NCBI GenBank assembly: GCA_022825825.1
Contig: JAJDWA010000062.1
Location: 124,001-188,000, forward strand
Reading direction: 5' to 3'
Source: Candidatus Poribacteria bacterium
Lineage (GTDB): Bacteria > Poribacteria > WGA-4E > WGA-3G
DNA length: 64,000 nucleotides
Below the pieces are notes generated by a model that was not told the DNA's origin, ran no database searches, and was given only the letters and a program-made list of their open reading frames with translations. Positions 6,381 to 59,862 of the stretch are shown here, piece after piece. Position numbers and translations under genes: made by a program. Each line of letters begins with the position of its first letter. Positions within the stretch are counted from its first letter, which is position 1.

Positions 6381-6773
6381 TTATTCAATCACTTTTGCCT
6401 TAAAACGAGGATCTGCTTCAACAGCCTTTACCAGAGCATCGTTTGTAACTTTGCCCTTTTCTACTTTAACGACAGCTTTATTAGCGGATCTGTCAACACT
6501 AACAACCTCTTTAACACCTGAAACCTTAGCAAGTGCAGACTGCACTGCTGGTGGACACGCACTTCATGTCATGCCTGTAACAGTTAAACTGATTTCTTCA
6601 ATAGCAACCGCAGCTTCTTCAGCCTGTTCTGTTGTCTCAGTTTCTTGTGCTTGTTCTGTTGTCTCAGTTTGTTGAGTCTCTTCTGCTGGTTTCTCTTCAG
6701 TATCTTTTTGCTGGTTAGCACACCCAAAGACAAATGCCAGCATTACAATGCAGATAAGTGCTTTATTTAACAT
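6381..6773 (-). CDS. selenocysteine-containing HMA-domain lipoprotein (copy 1, UGA read through)
   Basis: Read through one in-frame TGA (complement at 6564-6566), this gene encodes 130 residues. It begins with a lipoprotein signal peptide (lipobox VFG-C18). A Glu/Thr/Gln-rich linker with an internal 27-nt direct repeat follows, then a 65-residue heavy-metal-associated (HMA) domain. The HMA motif normally reads GMTCxxC; here it is GMT-U70-SAC, the TGA replacing the first cysteine, and the rest of the domain continues intact for 60 residues to TAA. A stem-loop AGTGCA-GTC-TGCACT lies 23 nt after the TGA. A metal or redox role in the periplasm is inferred. AAGGGAG precedes ATG. A pseudogene is unlikely because the paralogue has the same arrangement. 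Confidence 0.88.
6532..6546 (-). promoter_or_regulatory. candidate bacterial SECIS hairpin of HMA copy 1
   Basis: On the coding strand AGTGCA and TGCACT pair around a GTC loop whose first base is G. Twenty-three nucleotides separate the TGA from the loop, within the 16-37 nt window given for bacterial SECIS elements. The stem is preserved in the paralogue while loop bases differ. Confidence 0.65.
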
Positions 6774-6893
6774 TTGAAATAACTCCCTTAGATAGATTCA
6801 CCACAATAATTAAGAATATTCTTACGTCTTGCAGTTTATCTTTCACTATCTCCAAAAGTATTGGATATTGGACAATTTGCCCAAAATAAGATG

Positions 6894-6923: not shown

Positions 6924-7307
6924 TTAGTTAACAACACTTGCCGTAAAGCGCGGATCTGCTTCAACAGCTTTAATCAGAGCATCATTTGTAACTTTGCCCT
7001 TTTCTACTTTAACGACAGCCTTCTTGGTGGCTCTTGTAACACTGACAACCTCTTTAACACCCGTGACCTTACTAAGTGCATCCTGCACTGCGGCGGGACA
7101 CGAGCCTCATGTCATGCCCTCCACCTGAAGTGTCACTTCCTGATAGGCGGCTTTTTCTGGCGTTGGCACCGATAATTCTTCCATCGGGACCTCTTCCGCA
7201 GTCATTGTGGTTTCTACGGGCATTTCTGCTTGCTGCCCGACCATACCACAACCCATCAGGAATGCAAAGGTAACGAGAGTAATCAGCGTAAATCTCGCGA
7301 TATTCAT
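6924..7307 (-). CDS. selenocysteine-containing HMA-domain lipoprotein (copy 2, UGA read through)
   Basis: This 127-residue tandem paralogue has its own lipoprotein signal (LMG-C20), a short acidic linker and an HMA domain reading GMT-U67-GSC, with the TGA complement at 7107-7109. The 60 residues after U are about 75% identical to copy 1 and end at the same alignment position, so both genes are evidently under selection past the TGA. The stem AGTGCA/TGCACT recurs 23 nt after the TGA with loop GGA. AAGGAGG directly precedes the ATG, and a good promoter lies at 7339-7368. The U-x-x-C pair should bind a soft metal such as Hg or Cu, or act in redox chemistry; the family is known for that, the substrate here is inferred. 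Confidence 0.88.
7075..7089 (-). promoter_or_regulatory. candidate bacterial SECIS hairpin of HMA copy 2
   Basis: Coding-strand AGTGCA-GGA-TGCACT sits 23 nt after the TGA, at the same distance and with the same stem as in copy 1. G occupies the first loop position. Confidence 0.65.
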
Positions 7308-7338
7308 CGTTTTACCTCCTTTGTTATTTACATAAATG

Positions 7339-7368
7339 ATAATATCATATTTTTTTATTTTGTGTCAA
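7339..7368 (-). promoter_or_regulatory. sigma-70-type promoter for HMA copy 2
   Basis: Read on the minus strand: -35 TTGACA (7363-7368), 18-bp spacer, -10 TATTAT (7339-7344), about 30 nt ahead of the ribosome site and ATG. Confidence 0.55.
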
Positions 7369-15752: not shown

Positions 15753-16877
15753 TTATGGCTTATAGATTGTTGTTTCGGGATAGTAGCGTGCCCAAGCGAA
15801 CCAGTAAATATTGACAGCGGTCAACCGTTCCAAACGCGTCCCTTTCTCTTTACCCGATATTGCCACACCTGTGACCAGATTCCAGCGTGTTCCGGTGTTG
15901 TCCTCTACAAAATGTCCATCTTGAGATCGAAAGGTTCGCACATCTTTTCCAATGTTTCGCTTAAAGACAGCCGTTGCGAATGACACTTTATCGTGAAAAA
16001 TCAGCAACGGCACTTCACCGACCATATCGTTAATCACGGCCGTTTTGGCAAAGTGTGTTAATGGATACGCGCGAAACTGTGTATTATAGGGATCGACAGA
16101 ACCGCTTCGTCCATCAGCACCGTCTTGCCCAGCAGTGCCGGGTTGTCCATCAGCTCCATCTCTACCATGGTCGCCATCTCTGCCCGGAGCACCATCTTTT
16201 GTCTGGACTTGGACTCCGATCACAAGGGACTTATTAGGCAGTCTCTTATCGGTGTATCTTGTCCCACTCACACCTGCGCGTTGGCTTTTATGATAGTCTG
16301 CGTAATTATCGCGCTTGAAGCTTTCGCGCGCACCTACAGACAACACTTTTGTCTGAGGGTAATTTGTTTGCCATGTTTTCCACGCTATCTGTGGCATGGA
16401 AGCGAGTGGTTTCAACTGCTTGCCTTTCAGTGGTCCCTGTATCGCTTCCCCAGTGATGTGAGACCAGAGAGAACGGGTTTGGTGGTCGTACATTAACAAC
16501 GCATCACGCCACAATTTACCGCTGACACCGAATGTATAGGTTTTACCGTCAAGTTCCCGGCTATACACGATAGCCGTTTTGCAGAGCGGTCACCATGTGG
16601 TAGCGATTTTGTTTCCGCCGACAACATCGTTCACAATCTCGTGTCCGTTCAGCAGATAGAGTGAGTAGGCATGACTTTCACCGTTGAAGGTTACACCAAT
16701 CACAGGGGCATCCGCGTCTAATTTTGCTTTGGCAGCAGGCACAAATTGCGGTTTTGTGATGGCGGGGATTGCATCAAAGGGTAGCAGGGTTCGGATTGGG
16801 TCTTTATCGTCCTCTGCTGCGGTTGCACTGAGGGAGGCGCCGAGTAATAGTGTGAGAATGAGGATATAGTTTTTCAT
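15753..16877 (-). CDS. DUF3179 selenoprotein with collagen-like insert (UGA read through)
   Basis: Reading through one TGA (complement at 16590-16592) gives 374 residues. There is a signal peptide (residues 1-20), then a first DUF3179 half whose usual T-W-C-P-L-C motif reads T-T-W-U96-P-L-C99. The downstream YSRELDG, FGVSG and SLWSHITGEA segments are all typical of the family. Residues 229-261 are eleven Gly-X-Y triplets inserted between VIGV and the RAYPL of a second DUF3179 half. A 7-bp stem CGGCTAT/ATAGCCG follows the TGA. AAGGA precedes the ATG. The protein is exported; its reaction is unknown, but U-x-x-C suggests redox or metal chemistry. Reading it as two broken genes is unlikely because frame and family continuity are perfect. 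Confidence 0.88.
16095..16193 (-). repeat. collagen-like Gly-X-Y coding segment
   Basis: Eleven uninterrupted triplets (GAP GRD GDH GRD GAD ...) with Asp/Arg-rich X and Y positions. It lies at a turn of the second DUF3179 half, so it may form a solvent-exposed trimerising loop. Confidence 0.85.
16558..16576 (-). promoter_or_regulatory. candidate bacterial SECIS hairpin of the DUF3179 gene
   Basis: Coding strand CGGCTAT-CGTGT-ATAGCCG: a perfect 7-bp stem and 5-nt loop with G in second position. Twenty nucleotides separate TGA from the loop. Confidence 0.7.
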
Positions 16878-16991
16878 GTTTTTCCTTGTTTTTTCTGCAT
16901 GGAATATGTTATAAAATTCTTGTCTAACTGAATAATATTTTACCGTAATATACGCAAGAAAACAACTCAAAATTATAGGAGTTAAAAAATA

Positions 16992-18485
16992 ATGGAACCA
17001 CCGAAAGTATTTGCCTCATATTCTCATGATTCAGATGAACACAAACAGTGGGTGCTAAAACTTTGTAATAAACTCGTTGAAAACGGTGTAGATGTGATGT
17101 TAGATCAGTGGGATGTACGCTTGGGCACAGATCAGACATTTTTCATGGAGAAACTTAGTACTGCTGATAGAGTTCTTATGATATGCACAGACGCTTATGT
17201 AAAAAAGGCAGATAATCGTGAGGGTGGCGTGGGATATGAAGGACTTATCATCACTGAGCAGATTGCTGAGGACGTGAAAACTGATAAATTTATACCAGTA
17301 ATTCGCCAATCCTCAAATGAAAGGAAAATGCCGATTTTTTTGGGAAAGAGGCAATATATCGAATTCACTGATGACGACAGATTTGATGAAAAGTTCAATG
17401 AATTGCTTCATGACATTCATGGTGTACCAATTATTTCAAGACCTCCGTTGGGGGAAAATCCACTTACTAAACAGTCATCTGAATTTGAAACCTCAGATCA
17501 TAACCTCCCCGAAATTCCTGACAAGATTGAATCGGTTTCCGATGCTTATGAGTCTGCATTTGAGTTTGCAAGAGCCGATGATACACTTGGTTGGCAAGAA
17601 CTTGTTGGAAAAATTCGATCTAATGTGCAAAATTCATTAGAGCAATTGAAACAAGAAAATTTAAATAGTGGAAACTTGGAAAACGCCGAACAACGCATTG
17701 GGGTAGTGGATAAAGCGATTAATATTATTTCACCTCTCATTTCTGTAGCATTGGCAGGGGTCAAATCGCAGAATCAACATTTTAACAATCAAACATTTAT
17801 ATTTGAAAGTTTACGTAGTATAGATGGATGGAACCGTAACTCTGGCGATGAGTACCGTATAGGTATTCCTAATTTCCTTGGATATGTTTACCAGAGTCTG
17901 CACGGGAGTATTAGTCTTAACACAAATCAATTATCATTAGCACTTGATTTAGCACGATTCAAGGTTCCTATAGTTAGAAGTCCACAATCACAACACGATA
18001 TGGTATGGAAAATCACTATGCTTATGGGGTGGTCTCAGGCACTCAACCAGAAATGTACAGAAAATTGGCAATATTTGGCAGACGCTTATGAGAGATGGAA
18101 GTGGTTACGTGACGTATTTGAAGATAATTCAACCTATCTTACATCCCTCGTTGCTTACTACATGGCACTAAAGATACATGAATGGGCGGTAAAAATTGCT
18201 TCCAAAAGCAAGGAAAGTCTAAATGCACAATACCTCAATGTGCCATTAGATTTTTTATTTGAGGAATCCGAAATAATAGAGCGTGCAACTTCGCTTCTCC
18301 TTCGCACCCTAAAAGTATCAGAACTTTGGGAATGTGTAGGTGTAAACATAGATCAGATGAGGGATTCATGGGAAATGTCAATTGAACAGTATAGCAGTCA
18401 ATTATTACATTTCTATGATTCAAGTCATCTGGAATTTCTTAGCAAGATCCCTCGTCAATATTTAACTTTTTTTGACGTTTTGTAA
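16992..18485 (+). CDS. SEFIR (TIR-like) domain protein, probable defence effector
   Basis: Residues 5-140 of this 497-residue protein form a SEFIR/TIR-like domain: VFASYSHDSDEHKQWV, then DVMLDQWDV, DRVLMICTDAYVKKA and GVGYEG, matching bacterial SEFIR proteins. These domains mediate signalling or NAD-directed activity in immune systems. The remaining 350 residues are mostly helical with no recognised motif and could sense infection. AGGAG at 16977-16981 supports ATG 16992. It converges on the type III restriction gene with 59 nt between stops, so it belongs to the same defence island. Whether it acts alone is unknown. Confidence 0.8.
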   Translation: MEPPKVFASYSHDSDEHKQWVLKLCNKLVENGVDVMLDQWDVRLGTDQTFFMEKLSTADRVLMICTDAYVKKADNREGGVGYEGLIITEQIAEDVKTDKFIPVIRQSSNERKMPIFLGKRQYIEFTDDDRFDEKFNELLHDIHGVPIISRPPLGENPLTKQSSEFETSDHNLPEIPDKIESVSDAYESAFEFARADDTLGWQELVGKIRSNVQNSLEQLKQENLNSGNLENAEQRIGVVDKAINIISPLISVALAGVKSQNQHFNNQTFIFESLRSIDGWNRNSGDEYRIGIPNFLGYVYQSLHGSISLNTNQLSLALDLARFKVPIVRSPQSQHDMVWKITMLMGWSQALNQKCTENWQYLADAYERWKWLRDVFEDNSTYLTSLVAYYMALKIHEWAVKIASKSKESLNAQYLNVPLDFLFEESEIIERATSLLLRTLKVSELWECVGVNIDQMRDSWEMSIEQYSSQLLHFYDSSHLEFLSKIPRQYLTFFDVL

Positions 18486-59555: not shown

Positions 59556-59616
59556 TCAAGAAGTTTTATAACAAGACATGTAAAATCCTACGATTTTAGA
59601 CAAGGAGGTGAAACAG

Positions 59617-59862
59617 ATGTCTCTCGATTGGAAACCGCGTCACAGGGATATGATTATTGGCGGCATCCCCTGGCTTGCAAGAATTTCCGATAAAGCTAAC
59701 GCGAAATTGCAAGGCATTATCGGTGAATACATATATCCGTGACCGCAAGACAAAATGTTCCTGGAGGAACATAAAATATCTGCTGAAGAATTTGTTGAAA
59801 TGGTAAAAAACAATCCTTCAGATGATGAGATGATTGCTGCCATGAAAAAGTTGAACAGTTAA
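59617..59862 (+). CDS. DUF5069 selenoprotein (UGA read through)
   Basis: Reading through TGA at 59740-59742 gives 81 residues with full DUF5069 character: GGIPWLARISDKANAKLQGI, then GEYIYP-U42-PQD where the family normally has Y-x-CP-x-D, then FLEEHKISAEEFVEMV and a DDEMIAAMKK end. The stop at 59860-59862 fits the family's length class. A perfect 7-bp hairpin ATGTTCC/GGAACAT follows the TGA. AAGGAGGTG at 59602-59609 is one of the strongest ribosome sites in the window. The family's reaction is unknown; U replacing the sole conserved cysteine suggests that this residue is chemically active. Confidence 0.87.
59755..59772 (+). promoter_or_regulatory. candidate bacterial SECIS hairpin of the DUF5069 gene
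   Basis: ATGTTCC-TGGA-GGAACAT: perfect 7-bp stem, 4-nt loop with G in second position, loop 19 nt after the TGA. Confidence 0.72.

What the first reader, a model, noticed from the sequence alone, without database searches (positions are those of the whole stretch)
59617..59862. DUF5069 selenoprotein: conserved cysteine encoded by TGA
A small gene missed by ordinary gene calling is intact if TGA 59740 is read as selenocysteine: the residue falls at the conserved Cys of Y-x-CP-x-D in DUF5069. A perfect 7-bp hairpin with loop TGGA follows 12 nt after the TGA. The strong ribosome site AAGGAGGTG supports expression. It assigns likely catalytic importance to a cysteine in a family without known function.
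Basis: partly seen in the sequence, partly recalled or inferred. Interest (0 to 1): 0.85.

Follow-up and report, generated by a model that had tools for sequence, protein, structure and literature searches.

The report
New small selenocysteine protein, DUF5069 family
A short bacterial gene that ordinary gene finders would cut in two is a real selenium protein: its internal UGA 'stop' is read as selenocysteine, the same UGA is kept in over 100 genomes of two phyla, and the only other thing ever found in its place is cysteine, which points to the working residue of a protein family of unknown function.

Summary
Confirmed and strengthened. Window 59617-59862 (+) encodes an 81-aa protein with in-frame TGA at 59740; it matches Pfam DUF5069 (E 4.5e-14). 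A 7-bp hairpin with loop TGGA starts 12 nt after the TGA and meets the published bacterial SECIS constraints. The genome (Candidatus Poribacteria by its relatives) has SelA, SelB, SelD (itself a UGA selenoprotein) and tRNA-Sec(UCA). By profile search the TGA form is in 72 of 85 Poribacteria and 36 of 64 Latescibacterota genomes. In 13 further genomes the frame is uninterrupted, and all 13 carry TGC or TGT at exactly that codon, never another residue. The SECIS codons (TTC CTG GAG GAA) show no synonymous change in 94 distinct Sec sequences but vary freely in Cys orthologs; stem pairs 5-7 covary. Codons after the TGA evolve under purifying selection. One Cys genome (G148) lacks SelA, SelB and SelD, and its gene keeps the stem but has lost the loop G: a relic SECIS. 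No DUF5069 selenoprotein was found in NCBIfam, in four catalogues/papers read, or in 5.4 million full texts. Best reading: a new selenoprotein family. Biochemical function is inferred: Sec42, the only Sec/Cys in the protein, at a predicted helix N-terminus, probably a one-selenol redox nucleophile.

The parts
59602..59610 (+). Shine-Dalgarno site AAGGAGGTG, 6 nt before the ATG
   Evidence: Sequence; an AGGAGGTG-type site precedes the ATG in nearly all Poribacteria relatives with upstream sequence
59617..59862 (+). DUF5069 selenoprotein gene, 81 codons plus TAA, in-frame TGA at codon 42
   Evidence: Pfam DUF5069 53.2 bits against cut-off 27; orthologs in 121 of 149 genomes of two phyla
59740..59742 (+). 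TGA = selenocysteine 42 (motif Y-I-Y-P-U-P-Q-D)
   Evidence: TGA in 62 of 62 relatives; TGC or TGT in all 13 uninterrupted orthologs
59755..59772 (+). bacterial SECIS upper hairpin ATGTTCC-TGGA-GGAACAT, loop 19 nt after the TGA, G at loop position 2
   Evidence: Fold -9.9 kcal/mol over 47 nt; innermost five pairs kept in 91-92 of 92 distinct Sec sequences, pairs 5-7 covary; meets the model in PMC13188914
59758..59769 (+). codons 48-51 TTC CTG GAG GAA (F-L-E-E): coding sequence and SECIS core at once
   Evidence: pS = 0.000 in 94 distinct Sec sequences against 0.72-0.87 in the other coding segments

Best explanation
The gene encodes a selenoprotein of a selenoprotein family not found in any catalogue searched (short DUF5069, motif YxYPU). 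Shown from sequence: UGA at codon 42 is a sense codon under selection, followed by a bacterial-type SECIS hairpin inside the coding region, in a genome with SelA, SelB, SelD and tRNA-Sec(UCA). Inferred from established knowledge: SelB bound to the hairpin delivers Sec-tRNA to the ribosome at this UGA. Inferred from anatomy: Sec42 is the only Sec/Cys in the protein and lies directly before a predicted helix (residues 43-51), where a helix dipole would stabilise a selenolate, so the protein most likely acts as a one-selenol redox enzyme (peroxide, disulfide or electrophile reduction) that relies on an outside thiol to be regenerated. The confidence given is for the selenoprotein reading; the redox role alone I put at about 0.6.
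For: DUF5069 match. SelB 352 bits, tRNA-Sec 78.7 bits just downstream of selB with anticodon TCA, SelA 611 bits, SelD 372 bits that itself contains an in-frame TGA. TGA in 62 of 62 genome contigs relatives and, by profile, in 72 Poribacteria and 36 Latescibacterota genomes. All 13 uninterrupted orthologs have Cys at the position; ungapped Cys match in PDB 3omd. SECIS covariation and zero synonymous change at codons 48-51, both lost in Cys orthologs. Purifying selection after the TGA, pN/pS 0.25-0.38. At least two, most simply three, Sec/Cys switches on the tree. G148: Cys, relic hairpin with loop TACA, no SelA, SelB or SelD. Other likely selenoproteins in the same window. Model pLDDT 87.8, matches 3omd at Z 12.2, rmsd 1.8.
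Against: No protein-level evidence of Sec insertion. The redox role is inference: no second Cys/Sec, no telling gene neighbourhood (neighbours differ between lineages) and no functionally characterised structural relative (only 3omd, of unknown function). The protein covers only positions 4-75 of the 133-position Pfam model. The Cys is not kept across all DUF5069.
Confidence: 0.96

Rival explanations
1. UGA is read as cysteine or tryptophan by a suppressor or altered tRNA, not as selenocysteine.
For: Cys replaces the residue in orthologs, so Cys insertion would also give a working protein.
Against: A complete Sec system is present with a tRNA-Sec of anticodon TCA; the hairpin is bacterial-SECIS type and is lost when the codon is Cys. 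Trp never occurs at the site.
Confidence: 0.02
2. The gene is truncated at the TGA or is a pseudogene; the downstream similarity is a remnant.
For: Standard ORF calling ends at the TGA.
Against: pN/pS 0.25-0.38 after the TGA, the same frame kept in 99 TGA sequences examined at codon level, strong ribosome site.
Confidence: 0.01
3. It is a selenoprotein, but the selenol binds a metal or acts as a non-redox nucleophile rather than doing redox chemistry.
For: A single Sec with no resolving Cys; likely metal-binding HMA-type selenoproteins are encoded elsewhere in the same window; invariant D25, K26, Y38, Y40 and D45 could form a polar site.
Against: Most characterised selenoproteins are redox enzymes (PMC9312934); no further Cys or His cluster near the site.
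Confidence: 0.3

Closest known systems
PDB 3omd (Leptospirillum rubarum, DUF5069, 145 aa)
   Same: Same fold over 79 residues (Z 12.2, rmsd 1.8, 34% identity), Cys at the Sec position in TYNCPLD
   Different: Cys instead of Sec, 145 aa against 81 aa; function unknown
Catalogued prokaryotic selenoproteins of unknown-function domains (DUF3179, DUF166, DUF1573, DUF1858, DUF523, DUF466; PMC13188914)
   Same: Sec/Cys pairing in a DUF, bacterial SECIS just after the UGA
   Different: Different Pfam families; DUF5069 is not in the passages read of that catalogue
Thioredoxin-like one- and two-centre selenoproteins (UxxC families)
   Same: Sec at the start of a helix (predicted here; for thioredoxin-like proteins from general knowledge)
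   Different: Here no UxxC or CxxU pair, and the fold search gave no thioredoxin-like match, only 3omd

Membership tests
Bacterial selenoprotein | In-frame UGA within a conserved coding frame | tested here: met
Bacterial selenoprotein | Cys homologs at the UGA position | tested here: met
   13 of 13 uninterrupted orthologs TGC/TGT; 3omd
Bacterial selenoprotein | bSECIS: 3-9 nt loop, 4-16 bp stem, G in first two loop positions, loop 16-37 nt after UGA, MFE -7.5 or lower | tested here: met
   4-nt loop TGGA, 7 bp, 19 nt, -9.9 kcal/mol (model quoted from PMC13188914)
Bacterial selenoprotein | SelA, SelB, SelD, tRNA-Sec in the genome | tested here: met
Bacterial selenoprotein | Selenocysteine present in the protein | not testable with these tools
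   Needs mass spectrometry or 75Se labelling
Pfam DUF5069 (PF16798) | Score above the gathering cut-off | tested here: met
   53.2 against 27 bits
Pfam DUF5069 (PF16798) | Full-length domain, about 133 positions | tested here: not met
   Only positions 4-75 are matched; the protein is an N-terminal short form. Filed as a short subfamily, not a full-length member
A named selenoprotein family in NCBIfam 20.0 | Match to a curated model | tested here: not met
   0 families at E up to 1

The most novel reading that the evidence does not exclude
DUF5069 is a small mostly helical, non-thioredoxin redox fold whose activity depends on one selenol or thiol, kept as Sec across most Poribacteria and many Latescibacterota: a new selenium-dependent enzyme class rather than only a new name in the catalogue.
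Probability: 0.4. Interest if true: 0.75.

Novelty: new member of a known kind. Interest (0 to 1): 0.62.

Why it matters
It adds a selenoprotein family, in two uncultured phyla, that none of the resources searched lists. It names the probable catalytic residue of a domain of unknown function that already has a crystal structure (3omd), so an assay can be aimed at one atom. It also gives a clean natural experiment: Sec and Cys versions, SECIS kept or lost accordingly, and one lineage with a relic SECIS after loss of the Sec machinery. A 2026 review (PMC13188914) calls one direction of Sec/Cys substitution rare, with cases mainly in FdhA and SelD; the passage seen appears to mean Sec-to-Cys, and if so this is a further case.

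Tried and rejected
Plasmid, phage and viral collections: no relatives. PHROGs: none. Rfam gathering search of the window: nothing, SECIS included. Gene neighbourhood as a hint to function: UPF0182-like gene upstream and pheA-like gene downstream in many Poribacteria (named by my reading of the ORFs), other genes elsewhere, so no functional link. Extended lower SECIS stem: seen in single sequences but not in the consensus fold, not claimed. Fold search: only 3omd; the absence of other matches does not exclude other relatives. Literature: 0 papers with DUF5069 or PF16798. GOS_A, a domain-less family in the 2008 GOS paper, is shown only in a figure and could not be compared. L169 (G117) was missed by the codon-level parser and is not in the codon counts.

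Full report
ATG 59617, TGA 59740-59742, stop TAA 59860-59862, ribosome site AAGGAGGTG 59602-59610, a 12-nt spacer and then ATGTTCC-TGGA-GGAACAT at 59755-59772. Read with TGA as Sec, the 81-aa product matches Pfam DUF5069 at E 4.5e-14, over profile positions 4-75 of 133, so it is a short form of the family.

The host genome can decode Sec. G000 has SelB (352 bits), a tRNA-Sec 34 nt downstream of selB with anticodon TCA, SelA (611 bits) and SelD (372 bits) that itself carries one in-frame TGA. A scan of the window's TGA triplets turned up further likely selenoproteins: a DUF3179 protein (E 5e-77; DUF3179 is a catalogued selenoprotein family) and two HMA-domain proteins with U-x-x-C. So UGA recoding looks like a normal part of this genome.

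Conservation. 62 of 62 relatives in genome contigs have TGA at codon 42. The search patterns flank the codon without including it, so they did not select for TGA. By profile, in Poribacteria 72 of 85 genomes have a TGA form, 6 an uninterrupted form, and 7 no short form; in the phylum of G086 (Latescibacterota by the title of L083) 36 of 64 have a TGA form and 7 an uninterrupted one (my tally; for genomes whose sequence I did not read, '1 TGA' is the tool's stop count). All 13 uninterrupted orthologs were read at codon level: 10 TGC, 3 TGT. No other residue occurs. A profile of the family aligns without gap to PDB 3omd, which has Cys there.

The SECIS. In 92 distinct Sec sequences the loop is always TGGA and pairs 1 to 5 hold in 91-92 of 92; pair 5 is GC in 76, CG in 15 and AT in 1, pair 6 is TA, AT, GT or GC in 82, pair 7 holds in 53 and varies among AT, CG and GC. 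RNAalifold on 88 ungapped sequences gives the hairpin at -6.98 kcal/mol against -0.04 (s.d. 0.18) for column shuffles; column shuffling breaks codon order too, so that z-score alone is generous. The sharper test is synonymous: codons 48-51 have pS 0.000 in 94 distinct Sec sequences, against 0.72-0.87 in other coding segments of the same genes, and 0.81 in the Cys orthologs; Phe59 is TTC 47, TTT 47, while Phe48 is TTC in all 94. The element meets the four published constraints for bacterial SECIS (PMC13188914).

Selection after the TGA: pN/pS 0.25 (codons 43-46) and 0.38 (codons 53-76) in Sec forms. A truncated or decayed tail would not show this.

Evolution. A protein tree with column 42 masked needs 3 Sec/Cys changes, at least 2 by starred branches; with only 80 columns many forks are unresolved. 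The most telling genome is G148: its ortholog has TGT, still folds the 7-bp stem, but the loop is TACA without G, and the genome has no SelA, SelB or SelD above cut-off. It reads as recent loss of Sec decoding with a relic SECIS. Its completeness is not told, but absence of all three genes by chance is unlikely. The other Cys genomes mostly keep SelA, so a Cys form does not require loss of the machinery.

Machinery in TGA genomes. All seven genomes tested first have SelB over cut-off. In Poribacteria 8 TGA genomes lack a SelA over cut-off; 5 of these have SelB over cut-off, G030 has SelD, G060 has SelA fragments, and only G033 (73% complete) shows none in these searches. In Latescibacterota every TGA genome has SelA over cut-off except G135, which has a SelA fragment and SelB. 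Genomes without the short form there have SelA in 4 of 21. This association is confounded by ancestry.

Structure and mechanism. AlphaFold2 gives pLDDT 87.8 with helices 20-31, 43-51, 56-65, 69-80; the only fold match is 3omd. Sec42 directly precedes helix 43-51. The window protein has no Cys at all besides the Sec. From this I infer a one-selenol redox enzyme needing an outside thiol; metal binding or other nucleophilic chemistry is the main rival. These steps are not shown.

Novelty. No DUF5069 selenoprotein appears in NCBIfam 20.0, in the passages read of the 2026 and 2022 reviews, deep-Sep and the GOS paper, or under DUF5069 or PF16798 in the full-text library. Subscription papers and preprints are not covered, and GOS_A could not be compared. 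The kind (bacterial selenoprotein) is known; the family appears new.

Noticed in passing
window 15753-17015 (-), TGA at 16592: DUF3179 selenoprotein: frame open through a TGA (TTW-U-PLC), E 5.2e-77 to DUF3179, 7-bp SECIS-like hairpin 20 nt after the TGA; DUF3179 is a catalogued selenoprotein family. The frame goes on into a collagen-like stretch.
   Followed up: partly
window 6924-7364 (-) and 6381-6797 (-), TGA at 7109 and 6566: Two neighbouring HMA (heavy-metal-associated) proteins with GMT-U-x-x-C, each with a 6-bp SECIS-like hairpin; below the cut-off of NF041115 and related curated models, so possibly an uncatalogued variant.
   Followed up: partly
G000:C51:57412-58338 (-), locus L175: The genome's SelD is itself a selenoprotein (KCAG-U-ASKL).
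   Followed up: partly
G000:C2:25597-26844, loci L007-L009: A protein of three tandem DUF5069 domains with no Cys at the Sec column (e.g. YGDISGQD); similar 428-447 aa frames in many Poribacteria.
   Followed up: no
L161 (G016): Ortholog with a one-codon insertion between the UGA and the SECIS and a compensated stem GTATTCC-TGGA-GGAATAC.
   Followed up: yes
G061:C60:27816-28639: An EF-Tu/SelB-like frame split in two pieces with one TGA; may be an assembly error or a broken copy.
   Followed up: no
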